From the NCBI GenBank assembly GCA_036939355.1, contig JALLAP010000801.1:1-12791 (forward strand): a stretch of DNA of 12,791 bases. Direction: 5' to 3'. Of the stretch, positions 951 through 12,510 are shown one piece after another; position 1 is the first letter of the stretch; every line of letters begins with the position of its first letter. Source of the DNA: Thalassiosira profunda. Taxonomy: Eukaryota > Bacillariophyta > Thalassiosirophyceae > Thalassiosirales > Thalassiosiraceae. Under the pieces are notes generated by a model that was not told the origin of the DNA, searched no databases, and worked only from the letters and a program-made list of their open reading frames with translations. The position numbers were made by a program, and so were the translations under genes.

Positions 951-3071
951 ATGAAGCTCTATCGTCCCGCCTCCCTCGCCCTCCCGGCGCTTGCCCTCCT
1001 CTTCGCCACTCACGGCGTCGACGCTCAATGCTCGCTTCAAGACCTCGGAGGCGTCGACGCATGCGCCACCGAGACGCCGACTGGCGGGGGGGCCTGCTGC
1101 CGCGGCACCGGCGCCGGCGTCGGGACCTGCACTGACACGAACACGTGCGATTGTGCCTCCTACGCTGGCGCTGACGCGGGCATCTGCGCCGGAATCACTG
1201 ATTTCGGTGGGTTTGACCAATGCTTCCTGACGGGCGGCGCTGGCACATGCACAGCCATCATGTCGCCAACGTCGCAGCCGTCGGGCCAGCCTTCGCCGGT
1301 CCCCAGCGAGCAGCCCTCGCCGCAGCCGTCCGGACAACCGTCCGGGCAACCCTCGCCGCAGCCGTCCGGCCAACCCTCCAGCCTACCCAGCGAGGCCCCG
1401 AGCGGCCAGCCCTCGAGCCTGCCCAGCGAGGCTCCCAGCTCCCAGCCCTCGAGCAACCCCAGCCAGGCCCCGAGCTCGCAGCCCAGCGAGAGTCCTTCTG
1501 CGAACCCCAGCCAGGGCTGCGAGAACACCAAGACCGACTGCGGGTGGGGCATATTCAACCCCTGGACGTGCCAGTGCGATTGTCCGGTGGGCATCTGCCT
1601 CGACAACAACCAGCAGTGCTACCATCCCTGCGCCGACACGATCGAGACGAATCCCTGGGCCGGCTGCAGCCCCGGGTGGGACTGCCCGTGGTTCCCCGAC
1701 CCCGAGGTCGGGCACTGCGTTTCCAAACTACACCAGCCCAACCACTTCGAGATCTACCGAACGGCGAAGGAGTGCTGCGACGAGCACTACACGGGCGACG
1801 CCGCGGGCTGTTTGACTACGAGCAAGCGCCCGTGGATTTACTACTACGATAATGACACGCCCTTCCCGGACCCCAATGTGGACGAGAACACGCTGCCGTA
1901 CGAGCTCAACGGACATGCGCCGTACCCGTTCCCGATCCACTTCCCGGGCACCGGCGAACATCGCCCCGACAAGCCCTACGTGTCGGACGGAACGTGGGGC
2001 GGGCACTCGGGGTGGGGGCAGCAGCTCGGCAACCCAGAGCGCTGGTACCCCGATCTGGTCAATAAATTGAACTGCGTCCACGGCGACAACTACGAAGACT
2101 GGATGAACGACGAGGGCTTCGCGGCCGAATATCTGTTCCCGATGAATCAATACGATGATGGGGGCACGATGCGAGACTCGGGCATGGAGGATTGCTGCGA
2201 GAAGTGGTAAGTGGAGACTTGTTGTCCGAAACTCTCTTGGCTCGCACGATATGCTCACATGATATGACTTCCTTGCAACCCTTTGTGCAACAGGTTCCCG
2301 CAGAAGGGCGACGAATGCCCCGACGCCAACCCCTTCAACCCCGTCAACGCTGAGGCCGAAGATGAACCCTGGAACGCCGACCCCTACTCGGCCCACAACT
2401 ACTACTTCCCCGACTTCTCCGAAAACTCCTGCGGCTACGGGCGCGACTATCCCGCCTGGATGGGATGGACGCGCTACGAGAAGTACTACCTCTTCCGCGA
2501 GGAGGACGCCGACCTGTGCTGCGACCGCTTCTTCCCCGGCGCGAGCAATTGCCCCCACGAGGCCCACACGGATCCGGGCGCCGTGCAGTCGGGGTATTAC
2601 TGGACGGCGTACCAGGACGAGCTCGCTAACGACGAACCCATGCCCTTGGTGTACAATCACACTTATTGGCCAGACATCCACGGCCAAACATGCGTCAACG
2701 GCACCGACTATCCGGACTGGATGGGCTCGGACGTCGACTACAAGCGTTTGTACCTCTTCGGCACCCTCGAGGGGTGCTGCAACGAGTGGTTCACGGACCA
2801 GAACATCAACGACTGCACGGCCAACGTCCGCCAGGGATTCTACCACTACGATCCCTGTGCCACGAACCGCCTGAACCCCGAGGATTGCGACACCAGCATC
2901 AACTGGAGCAGCGAGGAGGCCCACATCCGCGCGAAGTGGTATCCCGACCTTGATGGCTACGAATGCAAGAACGACGGGGCCATGCCGGACTGGATGATAG
3001 AAGCGGATTATGTCCCCTGGTACACGTTCGATACCGAGGAGCAGTGCTGCGCGGCGTTTGGCTTTTGCTGA
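951..3071 (+). CDS. Secreted cysteine-rich protein with Pro-Ser linker and tandem CC modules
   Basis: Exons 951-2206 and 2294-3071 encode 677 residues. The start is the first in-frame ATG (CTCAAGATGAAG, purine at -3) and opens directly with a signal peptide: a basic start, then a Leu/Ala core, with likely cleavage after VDA (residue 25). The mature protein has a 10-Cys head (about 26-105), a Pro-Ser linker (106-188) and a Cys block of the form CGWG-x5-TCQCDCP (about 190-245). Next come one degenerate module (247-287) and four good tandem modules (about 365-424, 455-500, 543-590, 634-677). The core of a good module is aromatic-PD, then Cys, a WM, aromatic residues and a CC pair. Potential N-glycosylation sites include NHT, NGT and NWS. 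It is probably extracellular or in the cell wall, with disulfide-bonded modules held out on a flexible linker. The type is common in diatom gene sets, but I know no proven function. No membrane anchor follows the signal peptide. Confidence 0.85.
1266..1514 (+). repeat. Pro-Ser linker repeat (QPS/PSxxPS)
   Basis: These 249 bases encode 83 residues built from short units such as PSGQPS, PSPQPS and PSSLPSEAPS. The period is mostly 4 residues (12 bases), with several units repeated almost exactly at DNA level. It is in frame inside the secreted-protein gene and joins two Cys-rich parts. Such tracts are extended, disordered and often O-glycosylated in stramenopile secreted proteins. Copy number is likely to vary between alleles because the DNA repeats are near-identical. 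Confidence 0.9.
2043..3068 (+). repeat. Four tandem copies of an aromatic-PD / WM / CC protein module
   Basis: Each copy reads roughly as aromatic-x-PD, 5-8 residues, Cys, a Gly/Asp-rich turn, (P/D)xWM, aromatic-rich (YLF or similar), an acidic turn, then CC and usually an aromatic near +3/+4. The CC pairs are at residues 415, 494, 580 and 670. Copies one to three go on to a further Cys (for example GDEC, ASNC, NDC), while the last ends at the stop as FGFC. Copy one carries an extra 15 or so residues between YLF and CC, and the intron lies just after its CC. A weaker copy precedes it, with CC at residue 275 (about nt 1689-1810). The copies diverge at DNA level, so the duplication is old. Confidence 0.8.
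2207..2293 (+). other. Spliceosomal intron in the secreted-protein gene
   Basis: The 87-nt intron has a GTAAGT donor and a CAACAG acceptor, with a TATGACTT branch-like site and a T-rich stretch before the acceptor. It splits a Trp codon (TG|G), and joining restores CCEKW-FPQKG, which fits the CC-x2-W-F pattern of the neighbouring modules. Without splicing a TAA stop follows the Trp codon at once. Confidence 0.92.
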
Positions 3072-3300: not shown

Positions 3301-5019
3301 CTATGTCTGTTTTGTGTTGTTGGTTTCTCCGTGCATTCTTTTGACCTGTGTCCCTTGCAGCAAGCGAGGCATCCATCGCTGACCTGCATTTTGCTGTGCC
3401 GCATCTCCGTCACCAAATTTTGCCACGCCTTTTCTATCTCCATCTGCGTTGCACTCTCGCAGAAAGTCGGCATCCCACGACGACGCATTGGAAGTAAGGG
3501 CCAACTTGAGCGACAACACTGAGTGGCGCACTGACGGATGATCATCGGTATCTTTGGGTGCGGACTCCTTCCGAAGCTGAACCAGTTGGTCGTAGGACAA
3601 TGATGATATGGGAGCGGATGCATTGTTGTGTGCAGTTGTTTCTGAGACATTTGATTTCTTTGGAGTTGTCGTATCTTCCTTCGCTTCATCGGCCGCATCA
3701 ATTTCATTGTGCGATCTCTTTCGGCCTTGATTGCTCTTTTGCGGCGTGCTGTCGAGATTGGTTGAAGCTTTGCCTTGTTGTTCAATGCCCTTTGTTGGTT
3801 GCGAGGGGGTCTTTTCTGTCGAATCGAACGACTTCGAGTAGGAAGCGAGGAATTGCGACGGCAGCGTCAGCGGAGCGGATTCGGATTCCTCTTCAGTTTT
3901 GCTGCCCCCGCCAACGCTCCCAGCGCAGGTATCTTCTTTGCCCTTTGCCAAAGGCTGACTTGGTGCTTTGCTTGAACAGTTGGATTGTTGTTGACTCGGT
4001 AGTTGCCTTTTCTCACCGACGCGTCGATTGTCTCCGTACTTGGCTCGTACATCCCGGAAATAGTTGCCGCGGGCGACTTTCTCCTCCTGCGTCTTGGCCT
4101 TCAAGAACCCGCCCGCATTCCACAAGTGCTCGTCGTCCGAAGAGGAGGACGAAGATGCGTCGTCCTGTTTGCCAACAATCGCTTTTGGTTGAGTCAAGAG
4201 CTCTTCCATTTTCTCTCCTTTTGCATCATCATCTGCATCGCCGGCATTGACGTTTGGTTCAGCATTGCGCATGGGCGCATCATCGTTGTCGGCAGTCTCT
4301 TGTGGAGCTGCCAGCCCAACACTTGTCTCTTTATCACCGCCATCAGCGTCCGAATTATCAACACTGCTTTTTGGTTTTGCCGCTTCCTCGCTGCTCTCGC
4401 CTTCTTTTCCATCTCCCTCTGCTTCCTTCTGAGGAGAGGCATCCACTGGGTCATCCCCCGAATCTTTCCCAAGATCATTCTCTGCAACACCACCTTCTCT
4501 TATTCTAACCACCCGAAACTGCGCCATCGGCTTCAGATTGGACGACGAATACGTCGCCCCTCCGCTCCAAAGGAGCGAAATAACATCTCCGTCGGCCACT
4601 TCCACTGCCTGCGCATCGCCTTTTGGGGTGTCTCGGCGTCGATCCCCGCCGGAAGTGTGCACGTGCACCAACCGGGAGGCAGTTTTTGGAACGGACAGCC
4701 GCACCCATTTACCGCCATTGACGTCTGCAAAATTCCAGAAGTCTTTGCGCGGAATGAACTTCGACACCGCCTGAATGGACCTACAAACATCGCACAGCGT
4801 CGACTGGTCGCCCTCCTTCTTCGCCTTTGGCGGTGCCGCGCCGGCCTTCCACCGGCGCTTTCTACAATTGGGGCACGCCCGGGAGAGGGGGCGGAGCAAA
4901 TCCTCCCTCCCGACGCTCCCCGGAAGTTCCAGCGGGGGCAGGGCCGGACCAGATCCCTCGTTGTCACCGACGCCCTCGGGTGGGGCGAAGGGCCACAAAG
5001 GCGCGAGGTGGCCCCACAT
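3301..5019 (-). CDS. FHA-like, CxxC-containing, largely disordered SQ/TQ-rich protein
   Basis: This single exon gives 572 residues. The ATG at 5019 is the first in-frame ATG; the frame is open further upstream to about 5178 but only with GTG-type codons. The N-terminus (MWGHLAPL, then GSVGR at 34-38, SRLVH at 115-119, DGDVISLL at 143-150 and FRVVRI at 168-173) has the spacing of landmarks in a divergent FHA phosphothreonine-binding fold. Two Cys pairs (C49/C52 and C76/C79) could bind zinc. The rest (about 175-572) is acidic, Ser-rich and low in complexity. It contains a Ser6 run in an acidic setting (289-294), several SP/TP sites, a GRKR basic patch near 433 and SQ/TQ at 276, 310, 342, 354, 388 and 406. 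FHA plus an SQ/TQ cluster is typical of DNA-damage adaptors (NBS1, MDC1 and similar), so a nuclear checkpoint role is a reasonable guess, not a recognition. The far C-terminus is the least certain part. Confidence 0.7.
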   Translation of the reverse strand: MWGHLAPLWPFAPPEGVGDNEGSGPALPPLELPGSVGREDLLRPLSRACPNCRKRRWKAGAAPPKAKKEGDQSTLCDVCRSIQAVSKFIPRKDFWNFADVNGGKWVRLSVPKTASRLVHVHTSGGDRRRDTPKGDAQAVEVADGDVISLLWSGGATYSSSNLKPMAQFRVVRIREGGVAENDLGKDSGDDPVDASPQKEAEGDGKEGESSEEAAKPKSSVDNSDADGGDKETSVGLAAPQETADNDDAPMRNAEPNVNAGDADDDAKGEKMEELLTQPKAIVGKQDDASSSSSSDDEHLWNAGGFLKAKTQEEKVARGNYFRDVRAKYGDNRRVGEKRQLPSQQQSNCSSKAPSQPLAKGKEDTCAGSVGGGSKTEEESESAPLTLPSQFLASYSKSFDSTEKTPSQPTKGIEQQGKASTNLDSTPQKSNQGRKRSHNEIDAADEAKEDTTTPKKSNVSETTAHNNASAPISSLSYDQLVQLRKESAPKDTDDHPSVRHSVLSLKLALTSNASSWDADFLRECNADGDRKGVAKFGDGDAAQQNAGQRWMPRLLQGTQVKRMHGETNNTKQT

Positions 5020-5371: not shown

Positions 5372-8300
5372 ATGGAGGGGTGGATCGCATCCACCGACCC
5401 CGCGACGGGGCGGACCTTCTACGCCAACCGCTACACCCGGACGACGCAGTGGGATCCCCCGCCGGGCTGGAACTCGACATCTGCCGCACCCCAAAATGGG
5501 GCTCAACAAAGTGCACCTGGCACGACCGATGTGCTCTCGGACGTTGCCAAGGCCCGGGGGCAGATGGAGGCGATGGGGATGAATAATAAACAAAGTACTG
5601 AGCGCGGCAGTGGGGGAGGACGGCGGCAAGAGGAGGATGTGCTTCCGGACGGGTGGGAGGAGATGACCGATGCGGCCACCGGACGCAAATTCTACATCGA
5701 TCACGCGAACAAGGTTACCACGTGGGAGCGCCCGACAAAAAGCGTCGGCGGCAGCAATGGAGGGAACAGCGGTGCGGAGAGTGGCAGCAATGCGTCCAGC
5801 AGCGGGGCTGCCGAAACTGGGTTCGGATTCGATCCCAACTCGATCATGAAGCTGAACCAGCACGGCAGCCACGCGCAGTGGGACGATCCCCGATCCGGAA
5901 GCCGGGCGGGGCACCGCGACACCAAGCACCACAATCGCCGAAACAACTACCACAGCGACAGCTACAAGGGGGGATATTCCATGGGCAATTCCTCGTCGCA
6001 TCCGGGACCGCCCCCGTTGGATTTTGCGGTGGTGTCGGTGCCGGACGCGCTGCGGGCCGAGTGTCCGGGGTGTTATTCGGGCTTCACGTACACCAAGCGG
6101 AGGCACCACTGCCGCCTTTGCGGGGTGAGTGAAGACTGATTGATGATTATTGCAAAGCCGGCCGAATGTGTTGATTGCTTATGTTGATATTTTTGCTAAC
6201 TTGGTGCACGTCTCATGCAACACAGGACGTCTTCTGCGACGCCTGCTCCGCCTCCCGGACCGTCCTTCCCCTCGACGGGCCCGAATTTTCGGTGCCCGTC
6301 CGCATCTGCGATTGGTGCATGAAGGACGTGAAGAAGGGAAACTACTTCAGCTTGCGTCGGTATTTGACGCCGTTGCAATTGTTCGATCCGAACAATGCAG
6401 GAAGAAGGAGGAAGGTGGACGACGGGGCGGGGAGCGGGGAGGCCACCAAAGAGATTACCGCGGACACGGTGGCGGCGTCGCTGTCGTCGCTGAGCTCGGA
6501 CATTGATGCGATGGTGGGGGATCCCACGCAGTTTCAGGACAAGATGACGATCGACGCGTCGGTTTTGGTGACTGCGGTTGGGAAACACCTGAAGGACCGG
6601 AAGACGGCCGAGTATGCCATTCGCGTCCTGGCGAGCCTGTTGATGCTGGGGAACATCGCTGGGGAGGATTCGTTCGCGATGGCAGTGTACGAGGGTGACT
6701 TTGGTATGCGACATGCCGACTCTACCAACTCGCTGACATCGGATGAATCGGGCCTGAAAGCCATTTCAAGAAACAAGCCCTCGGAGATTGTGAATGACGT
6801 TCTGGCTGTGCTGGAGTGGAATGGAAGCGACGGGCGAACGCTCAGCGCAATGGAGCAGGCGGTGAAAGCAGTTTACTACCTCACCGAGCCGTCGTTCGTG
6901 GAAGGGGCAATCTCGAAATGGGACGCGCACCAGAGGCGAGGGAGCGAAGACGAGAAGGAAGAAAAGGGCGAGGACGGGCCGGTGGATGTCGACGAAGTGG
7001 GCGAGTCGATGCACGACCTCGTCCAAATCGACGTTCATCGTGCTTTCCGATCGATGCTGGACCATGCGACGTCCTCCGCATCTCCCTCGCTGCAGCGCTG
7101 GGCGACGGCGACGCTCCGACATCTCATTGCAGAAGACCAACGGCGCGCGTGCATCTACTCGTCGGGACCGTCGCGATACGATTCCTTCATGTCCCACCTG
7201 GTCTCCACCGGAGGGATTATGATATTGTGCAGCCTCCTGTCGTCAGACGACGCCGAGACACGAACGCACGCCACGTCGACATTGGAAGCTATCATCATCG
7301 CCACTCGTCAGATCGTGCTTGCACTAAACACTTCACGTGGGCCGGGAGGTTATTCGGCCCGCGCGGGGAGGGGCACGGAGGACGATTCGCGCATCGTCGA
7401 CGCCATCGTGTCCAATGGCGGCTGCGGCCCGGCCTTGGCGCACTTGCTCATCTCGGCAGATGAGTCGGTGGCCATGATGGGATGCTCGTTTGCGTCCTCG
7501 CTCATCTCCCCGTTGCTGACTGATCCCCGGGGATCGGGCCGGGCGCTGCAGCACTGCATTGCTGGCTCATCTAGTTCTGATGCAAAGGATGATGGCTTGT
7601 CGTCGTATAGAAAGGCAGCAGTTGCACTCGTGGTCGGAGACGCCTCTTTCAGTGGCCCCGGTGGCGAAGCGTCGTGCCTGCCTTCTTTGATTCAGATATT
7701 GCGGAGTGGGGTTGACGCGAATGCCTGGGGAAACGCTGCCTCGCGATCGATGAAGCTCCAGGTTGCGTCGGGCGAATGCATCGCCTCTGTTGCGCTGGCA
7801 ATTGGTCACATTTTGGGCACCACGGCTACCAACGACAATCTCTACTTGCGAGCCAAGAGCGCGTTGGACATTATGGAGAGGGAACGCTTGTTTGATGTGG
7901 CCTACCGAATCGTCACATCTGATGCCTCCCGGTCGTTCGACGCGTCTAGAAACACGCCGCAATCGCGTCTGAGAGAAGCAGCTGGCCTCATGCTGCTCGC
8001 ACTGTCGTCCTGCTCTGACCCCTCAGCGTCGTATCTTGTTTCGAACAAGGCGGTCTCTTCGCTTCTGGCCATTGCTGCAGAATCGCTGGGCGCTCCTTCG
8101 GCACTGCGAGGCGAGTGGGCGTCTCGTGGGTTGTGCCACCTCGAAACGAGTGCTGTGCTGCTCCTTCGAGCGTGGAAGGACGATGATGAATCCAATCGCC
8201 TCACTCTCCTTCTGGACGCGCTCGACGCTGGCGCACTTGGACTCGCGTCGCGTCTGGTCAAGGCGAAGGTGCACCTGAAGGACCACGATGGCAGCTACTC

Positions 8301-11300
8301 CAACATGCGCATCAAGATTGCCACTTGTTTTATTTTGGCAGCGATGTTTGGCATTGCCAGCGCTGACGGAGAGAATGGTGTTGGGGCATCTCGCCTGTAC
8401 AGTGCCGTCGATGCAGACTGCGCCGCCGCGTTGGCGTATGGTGGCGGCGAGTCAGATGGCAGGACCGACCTCCCCGCGTTGACCATTCACCTCCTTGGCG
8501 CGACACTTCCTTATGCTCACAAATTTGCGAACGAGGGTGGCGACGAACCATTGCCGATGATGGACCTGACAGAAGCGTGCCTCTTGGCAGCAGGCAGCAT
8601 GTGCGGTGCGGCGAGAGGATGCTTCAATGCAAAGGGTTCTTCAGCAGTAGAACTACAGCCAGGCAAGTTCAGCAACCAGAGAGAAGACGCAAGTGCAATG
8701 GCGTGCAGGGCCTTGTTGGCATCCTCCAAGGATCGAGCTGGTCCCCTGTTGCCTTCTGTACTAGTTGGAGCCCTGGGCGAATCGTTGGTTGTCCCAGCCC
8801 TGAGGTTGACTCTAGCCATTGCCCAAAATGGTCACTACGAAGTACGTGGAGACCTTGCCAGGAGCGGCATTCTCGTGCCGGTGGGCGACATTTTGCAGCA
8901 ATCACTTTCTTCCGGCAAGAGATACAACTTTTCAGTGTCAATCGCCATCGTGCGGTTCTGCGGACCCTCTGCGGTGGGCAGCTCAAATAGAGGCAGCATT
9001 GCAGCGCTGCAGAACGCAATACGCACGTTGTCGTGTGTGCTCGTGATACCGGAGAGCTCAGACCAGCATGCCAACGATCAGCGTAGAAACTCGCTGCTCT
9101 CACTCAAGCACGAAAGCCTTCTTGCATTGGAGGCGTTAGGCTCGAACGAAACACTTCACAGCACGCTGATTGCAGATGCGTTTCCCAGCCTGACTGAGTT
9201 CCTGGCTCAAGTGGACGAGGTTGAGGCCGGTGTTTCAGCGGAAGAATCGGATGTCATGGTCTGTTCTGCACTGAGAACGATTCAGCGGATAATCTCCCTT
9301 CCCTCTTCGGCGTCCTCTGCTGCTGCCAAGGGCATGATCGCGTCACTCGTGAAGATATTGAACGCGAGCGAGGAGAGGCCAGGCTGCAAAAAACGAGAAG
9401 TTTCAATGGAGCTACTGCATTCCATTGCGCTGGGCAAGAACGATGCTGCTGACAAGAGTGGCCTCCTGAAGAGCGGCGTCTTCGAGTCGGTAGCGACCTT
9501 GTTAGGTGAAGGGGGCGCTTCACCCAAAATGACAAGACTGGGTCTGGACATCATTGAGTTCGTCGTTGCTGAGGTTGATTCCGTAGACCCCAACTCCCCG
9601 GCGAGGGATGCTTATTTGCGACATTTCGTCAATGGCATGGCTGGCCAGGAAGGACTTCTGAGGGCCCTCATCGCGACCATGATTTCCACAAGAGGGACCA
9701 GTGGAGATGGCTCCCCTGCATCTTCTCTGTACAGCACACCGCTCCCACTGCCAGAGGACAGCAACGCACGCTATGACGCCGAGGACAAGGCCATCAAGAT
9801 CTTGTTCAGCATATCATGGCTGCTGTGCAGCGATGTCAGTGGTGCTGGCAAAGAGCATTTCTTGCATGCATTCATGCTGAAAGACGTCCGTGGATCGGCT
9901 GAGACTGTTGCAAATGCCTGCTGCATTTTCCTTCAAGTCTTGATGAATGAAAAGAGCGGAGTCTGCGTCCCGGCGAATCCTGTCGATAGATCACTCTTTT
10001 TGGATACCAAGTTGCCCACTGTCCAAAGCCAGCTGCTGGAGGGGTTGTCATCGAGTTTGGATGAGTGCCTGTCCAGCAACGAGTCTCGAGAGAACGCTGA
10101 ACAGCTGATTTGCAGCTTCAAGGTCCCAACTGTGAGCCTAATGGGCTGTCGATCGAAGGGAATTGGCCAGGCCGCGTTCGACTTGTACGAAAATGTGGTG
10201 CTCCCACTTCCGATTGATGTTCTTAGCGATCTGCTTCTCGCAGACGAGGATTCGCTCGTGTCCCTGTTTGAGCTGGTCACAGGACAAAACAATGCGGTGC
10301 CCGACGTTGATCATGCGAAGCAGACATTTGCTCTCACCCTGGGCAATCTTGCCAAGACTGGATCGTTGTCGGCAGCGGTGGAGCGCTTTGGGGTGCGAAA
10401 TCTTGCCATTGCAGCGTTGTCAGCTGCGATGCAAGGAACTGGGGATGAAACTATCGACGAGAATGAGGACAGCTTGCCTCGGATCTGCTTGGATAGTTTA
10501 GTGGCGATCTTGTCCGCCAAATCATATCATGAGTTGGAAATCACTGCATTGGAGGCGCGAACAATGTCAATGGCAATTGGCAAGATCCTGGCTTCCACTG
10601 TGCTCAACCGATTCTTCACCCAAGCGTCGCTTGAAACAACTTATGACGATACGATTGACCACAGTTCAGACCGCTCTGCAATCTCTCAGTCTGCAGAAGC
10701 CCGACTGCTTTGTTCAATCGCTTCCTATCCTGAAACTCTAGAGACACTGAATAAGGCTGGAGGCTTGGAAGCTGTGGGTCTCATCGCCCACGAGGGAGAG
10801 CTGGCGGCAATTCGAGCCATCGCAAAGGCTTGCGAATTGAGCCCAAAGTCGGTGGTGGATGTCGACGCACATCTCTCGATTCTGGACGCCCTTGTGGAGG
10901 TAGAAACTAAGCTCTCTCCAGAGCTGTCTGACCCCAGCAACCTTCGCGAGGTTGTGATCAAGTGCATCCAAATCATCATGCTCTTGAGCCAAGACCCGCA
11001 AACGAAATCAGCAGTCATGTCGGCAGAGCAAAGCTTTGGTTGCTTGGCGGCTGCGACGTGCATTATTTCTTCGAGGGCAAAGTTATTGGGTCAAGGAAAT
11101 GAAGCGGGAAAAGATGCCTCCTCTTCTGGCAAAAGGCACGTCCCTGCCAGCAAACCGACAACTGTTCAAAGAAAGGCGCCAGTTGTCAGAGCTTCAAAAG
11201 AGACTGCTGTCTCTGACGAAAAAGAGGAATTGAAGCTTGGAGATGCAGTTCTTATCGACTCGTCTCAGTCGTCTCCCTCCAAGAAGACCCAGACCCACGC

Positions 11301-12510
11301 AGAGCAGCTGGAAGGCGTCGTCGCTCATCTAGGCCCTGTTCAATTTGCGCCTGGGGACGATTGGATTGGCATCCACCTAACTGGATCCAGTGTGGGCCAT
11401 GGCAAGAACAATGGCATTGTGAAAGGCGTGAAGTACTTTGATGCAGGCTCTGAGGGCGAGAAGAATGGAAGTTTTGTCAGGAGGGCCAATGTCAAGAAGC
11501 AAGAATGTGTGGCGGAAGCTGAGGAAGAGATAGATGTGGAAGAAACCGAGGAAGAGGAACAGCACTCTGCGGTTGAAGAAAAGATCGAGCCACCAGTTGA
11601 GGCGCACCTGGAACAGACTTGGGGCCGGCTGCTAGTGAAGGGCGACCTGACGCTGGAAAGGCATGCACTATTGCTGCTACTCGGATTCTCTTTGAGCAAG
11701 CCGCACCGGGATTTGCTGATGCAGTCTGAAACTTTGGTCGACGGTATCTCTGGCGTTGTGCTGCTCCAGTCGCCGACACTCATCGACTTCCAATGCAAGG
11801 CATTGGACCTCCTGGTCTCGTTCACCCATCATCTGCACAAGTCAGATACCCACCTCACAGAACTCTTTTGTTCTGTGGTCGACTCTCGCACCAAAATGCT
11901 TCAAACGACGAGAGACAGGCGAGAGCAAGCAGGCGCGAAGCGTCTTCTGGCTTCGTCATTATCGGGGCTGCAGAATCTGTTCTGTACCTTTATGATTGCA
12001 GACGAGAAAGTGAGGTCACTGAAGATTGCCGCAGACCTGTTTGTGTTTCTGGCGGATTCATTGTACAAGGGACCCAAAGCTCGAAGATCAGCAGCACTGA
12101 AAGAGGACGGAGTGCTTTTCTGCCACCTGACATCCTTCTTCATGCTATCAATGGGATCGCAATCATTGTCAGAGTTTCTGTCGGCCAAGTTTGTTTCCTC
12201 TTGCCTCAGGCTTGTCACGATGACAGCCGGCGTAGCCTCGCTCGGTTGTCACATTCCAATTGCTGGGAGCGAAGGGGCCGATTACTGGAGTGCGGCGTTG
12301 TCCCATTGTCTTCATTACCTGTCATCCGTACTGAACGAGTCGTCTCAACAGAAGCTGGGAACCAGTTTCGCCTCTTTGATATCGGGTGTGGAGACTCCGC
12401 CGGGAGCTTTCGATTTGTGCATCAAGCACGTCGCAGATGGAAAGCTCGGCGCCTCATCTATCTCAGCGAAACAAATCTTGGCAAACATTGAACGGTTGCC
12501 TATTGAGTGA
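5372..12510 (+). CDS. Giant WW-WW-FYVE-ARM-CAP-Gly scaffold protein
   Basis: Exons 5372-6124 and 6226-12510 encode 2345 residues; the ATG sits in a GCCACCC context. WW1 is residues 1-31 (W4, F16-Y17, W27, P30) and WW2 is 91-121 (LPDGW, F107-Y108, W118, P121). A Ser/Gly/His-rich linker holds PGPPPL (211-216), a possible WW ligand. FYVE is about 221-283: ligand pairs C231/C234, C247/C250, C255/C258 and C279/C282, with KRRHHCRLCG and RIC motifs. From about 330 to 1880 the chain is helical, with ARM/HEAT-like pieces such as MILCSLLSSDDAETRTHA near 583. CAP-Gly spans about 1920-2010, with FAPG, W and GKNNG at 1977-1981, closing with GSFVRR. An acidic run (2017-2029) and about 300 more helical residues end it. 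FYVE domains bind PI3P on endosomes; CAP-Gly binds microtubules or EEY/F tails. It is inferred to be an endosome-microtubule scaffold. I cannot name a known family. Confidence 0.88.
6125..6225 (+). other. Spliceosomal intron splitting the FYVE domain
   Basis: This 101-nt phase-0 intron has a GTGAGT donor, a GCTAAC branch site about 25 bases before the acceptor and an ACACAG acceptor. It falls exactly between HHCRLCG and DVFCDACS, and removal rebuilds a textbook FYVE core. If retained, translation ends at a TGA at 6137-6139, four codons into the intron. That would leave a 255-residue protein with both WW domains but half a FYVE finger. Confidence 0.95.

What the first reader, a model, noticed from the sequence alone, without database searches (positions are those of the whole stretch)
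5372..12510. Single protein combining two WW domains, a FYVE finger, long ARM-like repeats and a CAP-Gly domain
The sequence shows complete WW, FYVE and CAP-Gly signatures in one 2345-residue reading frame with only one intron. FYVE domains bind PI3P and CAP-Gly domains bind microtubule plus-end partners or tubulin tails. Both in one chain would tether early endosomes or vesicles directly to microtubules, with the WW domains recruiting proline-rich partners. I know of no described family with this order. In a diatom such a scaffold could bear on vesicle delivery to the silica deposition site or on endosome positioning, but that is speculation.
Basis: partly seen in the sequence, partly recalled or inferred. 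Interest (0 to 1): 0.75.

Follow-up and report, generated by a model that had tools for sequence, protein, structure and literature searches.

The report
Diatom membrane-to-microtubule scaffold protein
A diatom gene makes one very large protein that joins a module expected to bind internal membranes to a module expected to bind microtubules; the main scaffold occurs in many diatoms, but the microtubule module was found only in the Thalassiosira group, where it appears to be a later addition.

Summary
A 101-base intron (6125-6225) joins two exons into a 2345-residue protein with two WW domains, a FYVE finger, an armadillo (ARM) solenoid and a CAP-Gly domain. A second, diverged copy in the same assembly keeps exons, intron and order, with dN/dS 0.18. 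A Thalassiosira rotula MMETSP entry carries all three Pfam domain types in one chain. It is one gene.

It is not a lone oddity. WW-WW-FYVE-ARM is a diatom family (89 long homologs, named ones all diatoms). The CAP-Gly was found in 15 of the 16 closest homologs plus both local copies. The remaining 73 lack it: 9 have nothing aligned there, 64 have a shorter linker, net acidic in 63. The predicted structure hangs the CAP-Gly between two parts of one ARM solenoid. Its core is better conserved than the solenoid (69.5% against 58.5% identity).

Most likely it is a membrane-to-microtubule tether. Binding is inferred, not shown. Caveats: no aligned member has the Trp of the FYVE WxxD motif, and the one EB1 frame found does not end in EEY/F. 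The silica idea has no evidence here.

The parts
5372..6124 (+). Exon 1: start codon, WW1, WW2 and first half of the FYVE finger (residues 1-251)
   Evidence: Translation; 94.5% DNA identity with the second copy on C851
5378..5470 (+). WW domain 1, residues 3-33
   Evidence: Pfam WW, two stretches; dN 0 against the second copy
5642..5734 (+). WW domain 2, residues 91-121
   Evidence: Pfam WW best stretch 91-121; dN 0
6038..6333 (+). FYVE finger, residues 223-287, split by the intron; keeps RRHHCR and RIC, lacks the Trp of WxxD
   Evidence: Pfam FYVE 63.4 bits; 91-row alignment columns; dN/dS 0.03
6125..6225 (+). Single intron, GTGAGT to ACACAG, 101 bases
   Evidence: Splicing restores CRLCG-DVFCDAC of the FYVE finger; same place in the second copy, 109 bases
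6226..12510 (+). Exon 2: second half of FYVE to the stop codon (residues 252-2345)
6460..11082 (+). Main ARM solenoid, residues 330-1870
11083..11304 (+). Flexible linker before the CAP-Gly core; its first 52 residues evolve fast
   Evidence: Residues 1871-1922: dN/dS 0.94, mean identity 0.275; pLDDT under 50 in model residues 244-277 and 295-300
11305..11493 (+). CAP-Gly core, residues 1945-2007, loop GKNNG at residue 1977
   Evidence: Pfam 46.4 bits; PDB CLIP-115 2cp2, E 4.7e-6; mean identity 0.695 in 17 members
11503..11607 (+). Acidic linker, residues 2011-2045, predicted disordered in part
   Evidence: pLDDT under 50 in model residues 375-398; translation
11611..12507 (+). C-terminal helical (ARM-like) part, residues 2047-2345, present also in homologs without CAP-Gly

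Best explanation
It is one gene for a large scaffold of a diatom family (WW-WW-FYVE-ARM). In an ancestor of the sampled Thalassiosirales a CAP-Gly domain was placed in a flexible acidic linker within the ARM solenoid. Shown: gene model, domain order, family range in the searches run, place of the CAP-Gly, its conservation. Inferred: the FYVE finger docks on PI3P-rich (endosomal or vacuolar) membrane, the CAP-Gly on its long tethers binds a microtubule (tubulin tail or another CAP-Gly ligand), the WW domains recruit proline-rich partners in trans, and the ARM solenoid holds further partners. The protein would thus link or position such membranes along microtubules without being a motor.
Against: No binding or localisation data. 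None of 91 rows has a Trp in the stretch where WxxD should lie. The EB1 frame in this assembly ends LLAD. No tubulin gene was found in the assembly, so the tubulin tail could not be read. Lys of the CAP-Gly loop is Arg in 11 of 17, and the window has GKNNG. The homologs without a CAP-Gly show that microtubule binding through it is unlikely to be the family's first task.
Confidence: 0.5

Rival explanations
1. The CAP-Gly serves as a protein-interaction module for something other than microtubules (for example a zinc-knuckle or another acidic C-terminus, perhaps within the protein itself), so the protein is an endosomal scaffold without microtubule contact.
For: The CAP-Gly front surface also binds zinc-knuckle motifs in CLIP-170 autoinhibition (PMC9062740, passages). 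Acidic stretches lie beside the domain. The EB1 frame found does not end in EEY/F.
Against: The Asn and a basic residue at the place named for EEY/F binding are kept; the closest CAP-Gly domains found outside the family belong to coiled-coil proteins, and the best PDB matches are CLIP-115 and dynactin-1.
Confidence: 0.22
2. The FYVE finger does not read PI3P, and the protein is brought elsewhere by its WW or ARM parts.
For: No Trp at the WxxD place in any of 91 aligned rows.
Against: The Asp of WxxD and the second His of HHCR, which PMC3017826 (passages) links to PI3P specificity, are kept in the window protein; FYVE dN/dS between the two copies is 0.03, lowest apart from the two WW domains.
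Confidence: 0.2
3. Two genes or an assembly join: the CAP-Gly end belongs to another gene.
For: No CAP-Gly in 74 of the 89 long homologs, 9 of which have nothing aligned at that place.
Against: Same order on a second contig, in a T. rotula MMETSP entry and in other assemblies at 45-64% identity; the part after the CAP-Gly is shared with homologs that lack it.
Confidence: 0.02

Closest known systems
FYCO1 and protrudin (animal FYVE adaptors for kinesin)
   Same: FYVE-based link of PI3P endosomes to microtubule transport (PMC9845747, passages)
   Different: They recruit kinesin-1 (same passages); their lack of CAP-Gly, WW and ARM is recalled. Here a CAP-Gly would touch the microtubule itself
Dynactin p150Glued and CLIP-170 family
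   Same: CAP-Gly domain; best PDB matches are CLIP-115 and dynactin-1
   Different: There the CAP-Gly is near the N-terminus and followed by coiled coil (recalled); here it lies between ARM parts, with no dynactin Pfam hit in exon 2
Vac8 / beta-catenin type ARM scaffolds
   Same: ARM solenoid fold
   Different: No FYVE, WW or CAP-Gly there (recalled); sequence identity only about 9-17% in the listed rows
Diatom WW-WW-FYVE-ARM proteins without CAP-Gly (P0017-P0089)
   Same: Same family over WW, FYVE, ARM and, where present, the C-terminal part; 27-34% identity
   Different: 10-41 residues in the CAP-Gly columns instead of the domain (64 of 73 rows; 9 have nothing aligned there)
Dictyostelium protein ACTFIW_002667 (P0094)
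   Same: WW, FYVE and ARM Pfam domains in one chain
   Different: Only 4% of the query aligns (46 bits); homology over the whole length not shown; no CAP-Gly in its Pfam list

Membership tests
Diatom WW-WW-FYVE-ARM family | Two WW, FYVE, ARM body and C-terminal helical part in this order, alignable end to end | tested here: met
   45-64% identity to 16 and 27-34% to 73 further homologs, some of them truncated
FYVE domain proteins | Zinc-binding Cys pattern with R(R/K)HHCR and R(V/I)C | tested here: met
   RRHHCR and RIC between residues 243 and 279
FYVE domain proteins | N-terminal WxxD motif | tested here: not met
   SVPD in the window: Asp kept, Trp absent; 0 of 91 rows have a Trp there, 4 of them with a gap
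FYVE domain proteins | PI3P binding | not testable with these tools
   Needs purified domain and liposomes
CAP-Gly proteins | Pfam CAP_GLY above cut-off with Trp, GKNDG-like loop and Phe | tested here: met
   46.4 bits against 26.5; GKNNG here, G(K/R)N(D/N)G in 16 of 17, GKCDG in P0007
CAP-Gly proteins | Binding to EEY/F tails or microtubules | not testable with these tools
   EB1 tail read as LLAD; no tubulin hit in the assembly
Dynactin p150Glued | N-terminal CAP-Gly followed by long coiled coil and dynactin domain (definition recalled) | tested here: not met
   CAP-Gly at residues 1945-2007 of an ARM protein; no dynactin Pfam match
FYCO1 | RUN domain together with FYVE (definition recalled) | tested here: not met
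   No RUN match in residues 1-401 or exon 2; coiled coil was not tested as such
ARM repeat proteins | Armadillo solenoid fold | tested here: met

The most novel reading that the evidence does not exclude
Thalassiosirales evolved a motor-free, single-chain bridge from PI3P membranes to microtubules by placing a CAP-Gly, possibly copied from their own coiled-coil CAP-Gly protein, inside the ARM solenoid of an older diatom WW-FYVE scaffold.
Probability: 0.35. Interest if true: 0.65.

Novelty: new variant of a known kind. Interest (0 to 1): 0.48.

Why it matters
If true, one protein couples membrane identity to microtubule contact in a major group of ocean diatoms, whose endosome and vesicle positioning is, to my knowledge, little studied. 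The presence or absence of the CAP-Gly in otherwise alignable homologs offers a natural comparison: swapping or deleting one domain tests what microtubule contact adds to the scaffold. It is also a clear case of a domain placed within a repeat solenoid while the parts on both sides stay alignable.

Tried and rejected
Two-gene model: rejected. Origin of the CAP-Gly: a tree of 43 CAP-Gly domains mixes those of this family with those of the coiled-coil proteins (5 changes of label needed, 0% of bootstrap trees with 1); 20 of 39 inner branches are open and the bootstrap had not settled, so the donor is not settled. Two of the 'other' rows there, P0115 and P0117, look like fragments of this family, which adds to the mixing. 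Gain against loss: P0008, which lacks the CAP-Gly, falls beside the CAP-Gly clade with weak support (0.344; open fork); it may be a first branch or a loss. A wider profile search (73 proteins, again only the candidates sharing most words scored) gave no long relative with a name outside diatoms; the named rows outside diatoms are matches of 60 bits or less, most of them over the FYVE finger; many rows have no name. Search for tubulin in the assembly gave nothing with either Pfam model, which I take as incompleteness, not absence. Papers, all as passages found by word: PMC10341546 speaks of FYVE and CAP-Gly in separate Leishmania proteins; PMC2837644 does not hold the words Thalassiosira, diatom or WW domain; PMC8233823 and PMC3001460 gave FYVE background only. 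PMC1434745 (CAP-Gly plus Thalassiosira, a kinesin paper), PMC2924389, the three papers and the rest were seen as search listings only, so the claim 'no description seen' rests on those listings. The rows shown are ARM-type or other helical repeat chains as far as their titles tell; no CAP-Gly chain by title is among them, which may only mean that the long solenoid fills the list.

Full report
Gene model. The window is contig C800 of a 21.8 Mb assembly of 1366 contigs. Two exons, 5372-6124 and 6226-12510, joined over a 101-base intron with GT-AG ends, give 2345 residues. The intron cuts the FYVE finger and its removal restores CRLCG-DVFCDAC. Contig C851 holds a second copy: 2346 residues, 92.8% identical, intron in the same place (109 bases), same minus-strand neighbour. 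Overall dN/dS between the copies is 0.177; WW1 and WW2 have dN 0, FYVE 0.03, ARM parts 0.08-0.23, CAP-Gly 0.19, the C-terminal part 0.27, the linker before the CAP-Gly 0.94. Third codon positions carry the most differences in all ten blocks of 235 codons. The intron itself is 92.1% identical over aligned bases, hardly more diverged than the exons, so it lends no extra weight of its own. The frame is coding along its whole length, CAP-Gly included.

Organism. A coiled-coil CAP-Gly protein on C457 is 99.5% identical over 1133 residues to one of Thalassiosira profunda (P0100); its partner on C836 is 95.3% identical over 1099. The window is thus from T. profunda or a near relative. The assembly holds two diverged copies of both CAP-Gly loci; the EB1 domain gave only one match, so not every locus is there twice.

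Family. A search with the whole protein gave 99 hits among 7988 scored candidates; P0001-P0089 are long relatives. Those with an organism name are diatoms, among them Thalassiosira rotula, Skeletonema menzelii, Nitzschia inconspicua, Pseudo-nitzschia multistriata, Cylindrotheca closterium, Fistulifera solaris, Thalassionema frauenfeldii; P0016 bears a CCRYP tag, which I recall as Cyclotella cryptica. Most rows have no name. Of P0001-P0016, 15 have the CAP-Gly and P0008 does not. Three of the 15 (P0005, P0006, P0015) show no WW or FYVE by Pfam and P0011 no WW; nothing aligns to WW1 in these four. Of P0017-P0089 (73), none has the CAP-Gly: 9 have nothing aligned there and 64 have 10-41 residues in its columns; over the wider linker (19-130 residues) 63 of 64 are net acidic. 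None of the new rows lists a CAP-Gly by Pfam. On a quick tree of 42 rows built without the linker columns, the 17 CAP-Gly rows and P0008 form one group (SH-aLRT 100, no bootstrap), with P0008 and P0016 unresolved at its base; the other 24 rows show no CAP-Gly, P0083 among them being cut short before that place. One gain, with or without a loss in P0008, explains this best. Only T. rotula's order was looked up; that Skeletonema and Cyclotella are Thalassiosirales is recalled, and most CAP-Gly rows are unnamed.

Is the CAP-Gly alive? Among its 17 carriers its core has a mean pairwise identity of 0.695, against 0.585 for ARM, 0.479 for the C-terminal part and 0.27-0.28 for the linkers beside it. 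The loop reads G(K/R)N(D/N)G in 16 of 17; the Trp at 1964 and Phe at 2001 are invariant. In CLIP-170 the K and N of this loop are named for microtubule tracking and EEY/F binding (PMC9062740, passages). Lys is replaced by Arg in 11 of 17, whose effect is unknown.

Is the FYVE finger alive? R(R/K)HHCR stands in 88 of 91 rows and R(V/I)C in 84; the Asp of WxxD is kept in 83, but none of the 91 has a Trp in that stretch, 4 having a gap. PMC3017826 (passages) names this Asp and the second His of HHCR as the residues implicated in PI3P specificity, so binding is plausible, with unknown strength.

Function. The best reading is a tether: FYVE to PI3P membrane, CAP-Gly to microtubule, WW to proline-rich partners, ARM as body. 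Known FYVE adaptors such as FYCO1 and protrudin reach microtubules through kinesin-1 (PMC9845747, passages); a built-in CAP-Gly would be a shorter route. The EB1-like frame on C300 ends in LLAD as read, so the classical EEY/F tail of EB1 is not there unless an intron hides the true end. Tubulin genes were not found in this assembly, so the tubulin tail is open.

Literature. Full-text searches for FYVE with CAP-Gly and diatom (0 papers), with domain architecture (1), FYVE with WW domain and diatom (1), FYVE with CAP-Gly (21), CAP-Gly with Thalassiosira (1), and FYVE with T. pseudonana and armadillo (3) showed no title or abstract start on such a protein. Of the papers in these listings, passages of two were read; the others were seen as listings only. 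The library lacks most subscription journals.

Verdict. Real, one gene, an architecture for which no description was seen in those searches, and a lineage-restricted domain on a scaffold shared by many diatoms. Mechanism inferred. New variant of a known kind (membrane-to-cytoskeleton scaffold).

Noticed in passing
window 951-3071 (+): Secreted-looking protein pieces: a possible signal peptide, a PSGQPS/PSSQPS repeat (Pfam PT, 38.3 bits) and repeated WYPD motifs; at least two reading frames, perhaps one gene with introns.
   Followed up: no
window 3301-5019 (-): 572-residue frame head to head with the scaffold gene, no Pfam match, kept beside the second copy on C851.
   Followed up: partly
G000 contigs C800/C851 and C457/C836: Two diverged copies of both CAP-Gly loci (one pair 93% identical in protein; the other pair 99.5% and 95.3% to one T. 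profunda protein): diverged haplotypes, homoeologues or two close strains in one assembly. EB1 gave only one match.
   Followed up: partly
L007 6564-9998 (+) and L006 1-4170 (-): Coiled-coil CAP-Gly protein whose CAP-Gly region is 57-59% identical to the window's; possible donor of the domain.
   Followed up: partly
Homologs P0055, P0063, P0064, P0065, P0071, P0072, P0079, P0125, P0126, P0128: The linker at the place of the CAP-Gly carries a PPxY motif, a classical WW ligand, in these members: possible binding to their own WW domains.
   Followed up: partly
L008 1126-1665 (-): The only EB1-like frame found in the assembly ends in LLAD instead of an EEY/F tail.
   Followed up: partly
G000: No match to either tubulin Pfam model in 21.8 Mb, odd for a eukaryote; the assembly is probably incomplete.
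   Followed up: partly
Homolog P0008 (2242 aa): Close to the CAP-Gly clade but without the CAP-Gly: either an early branch or a loss.
   Followed up: partly
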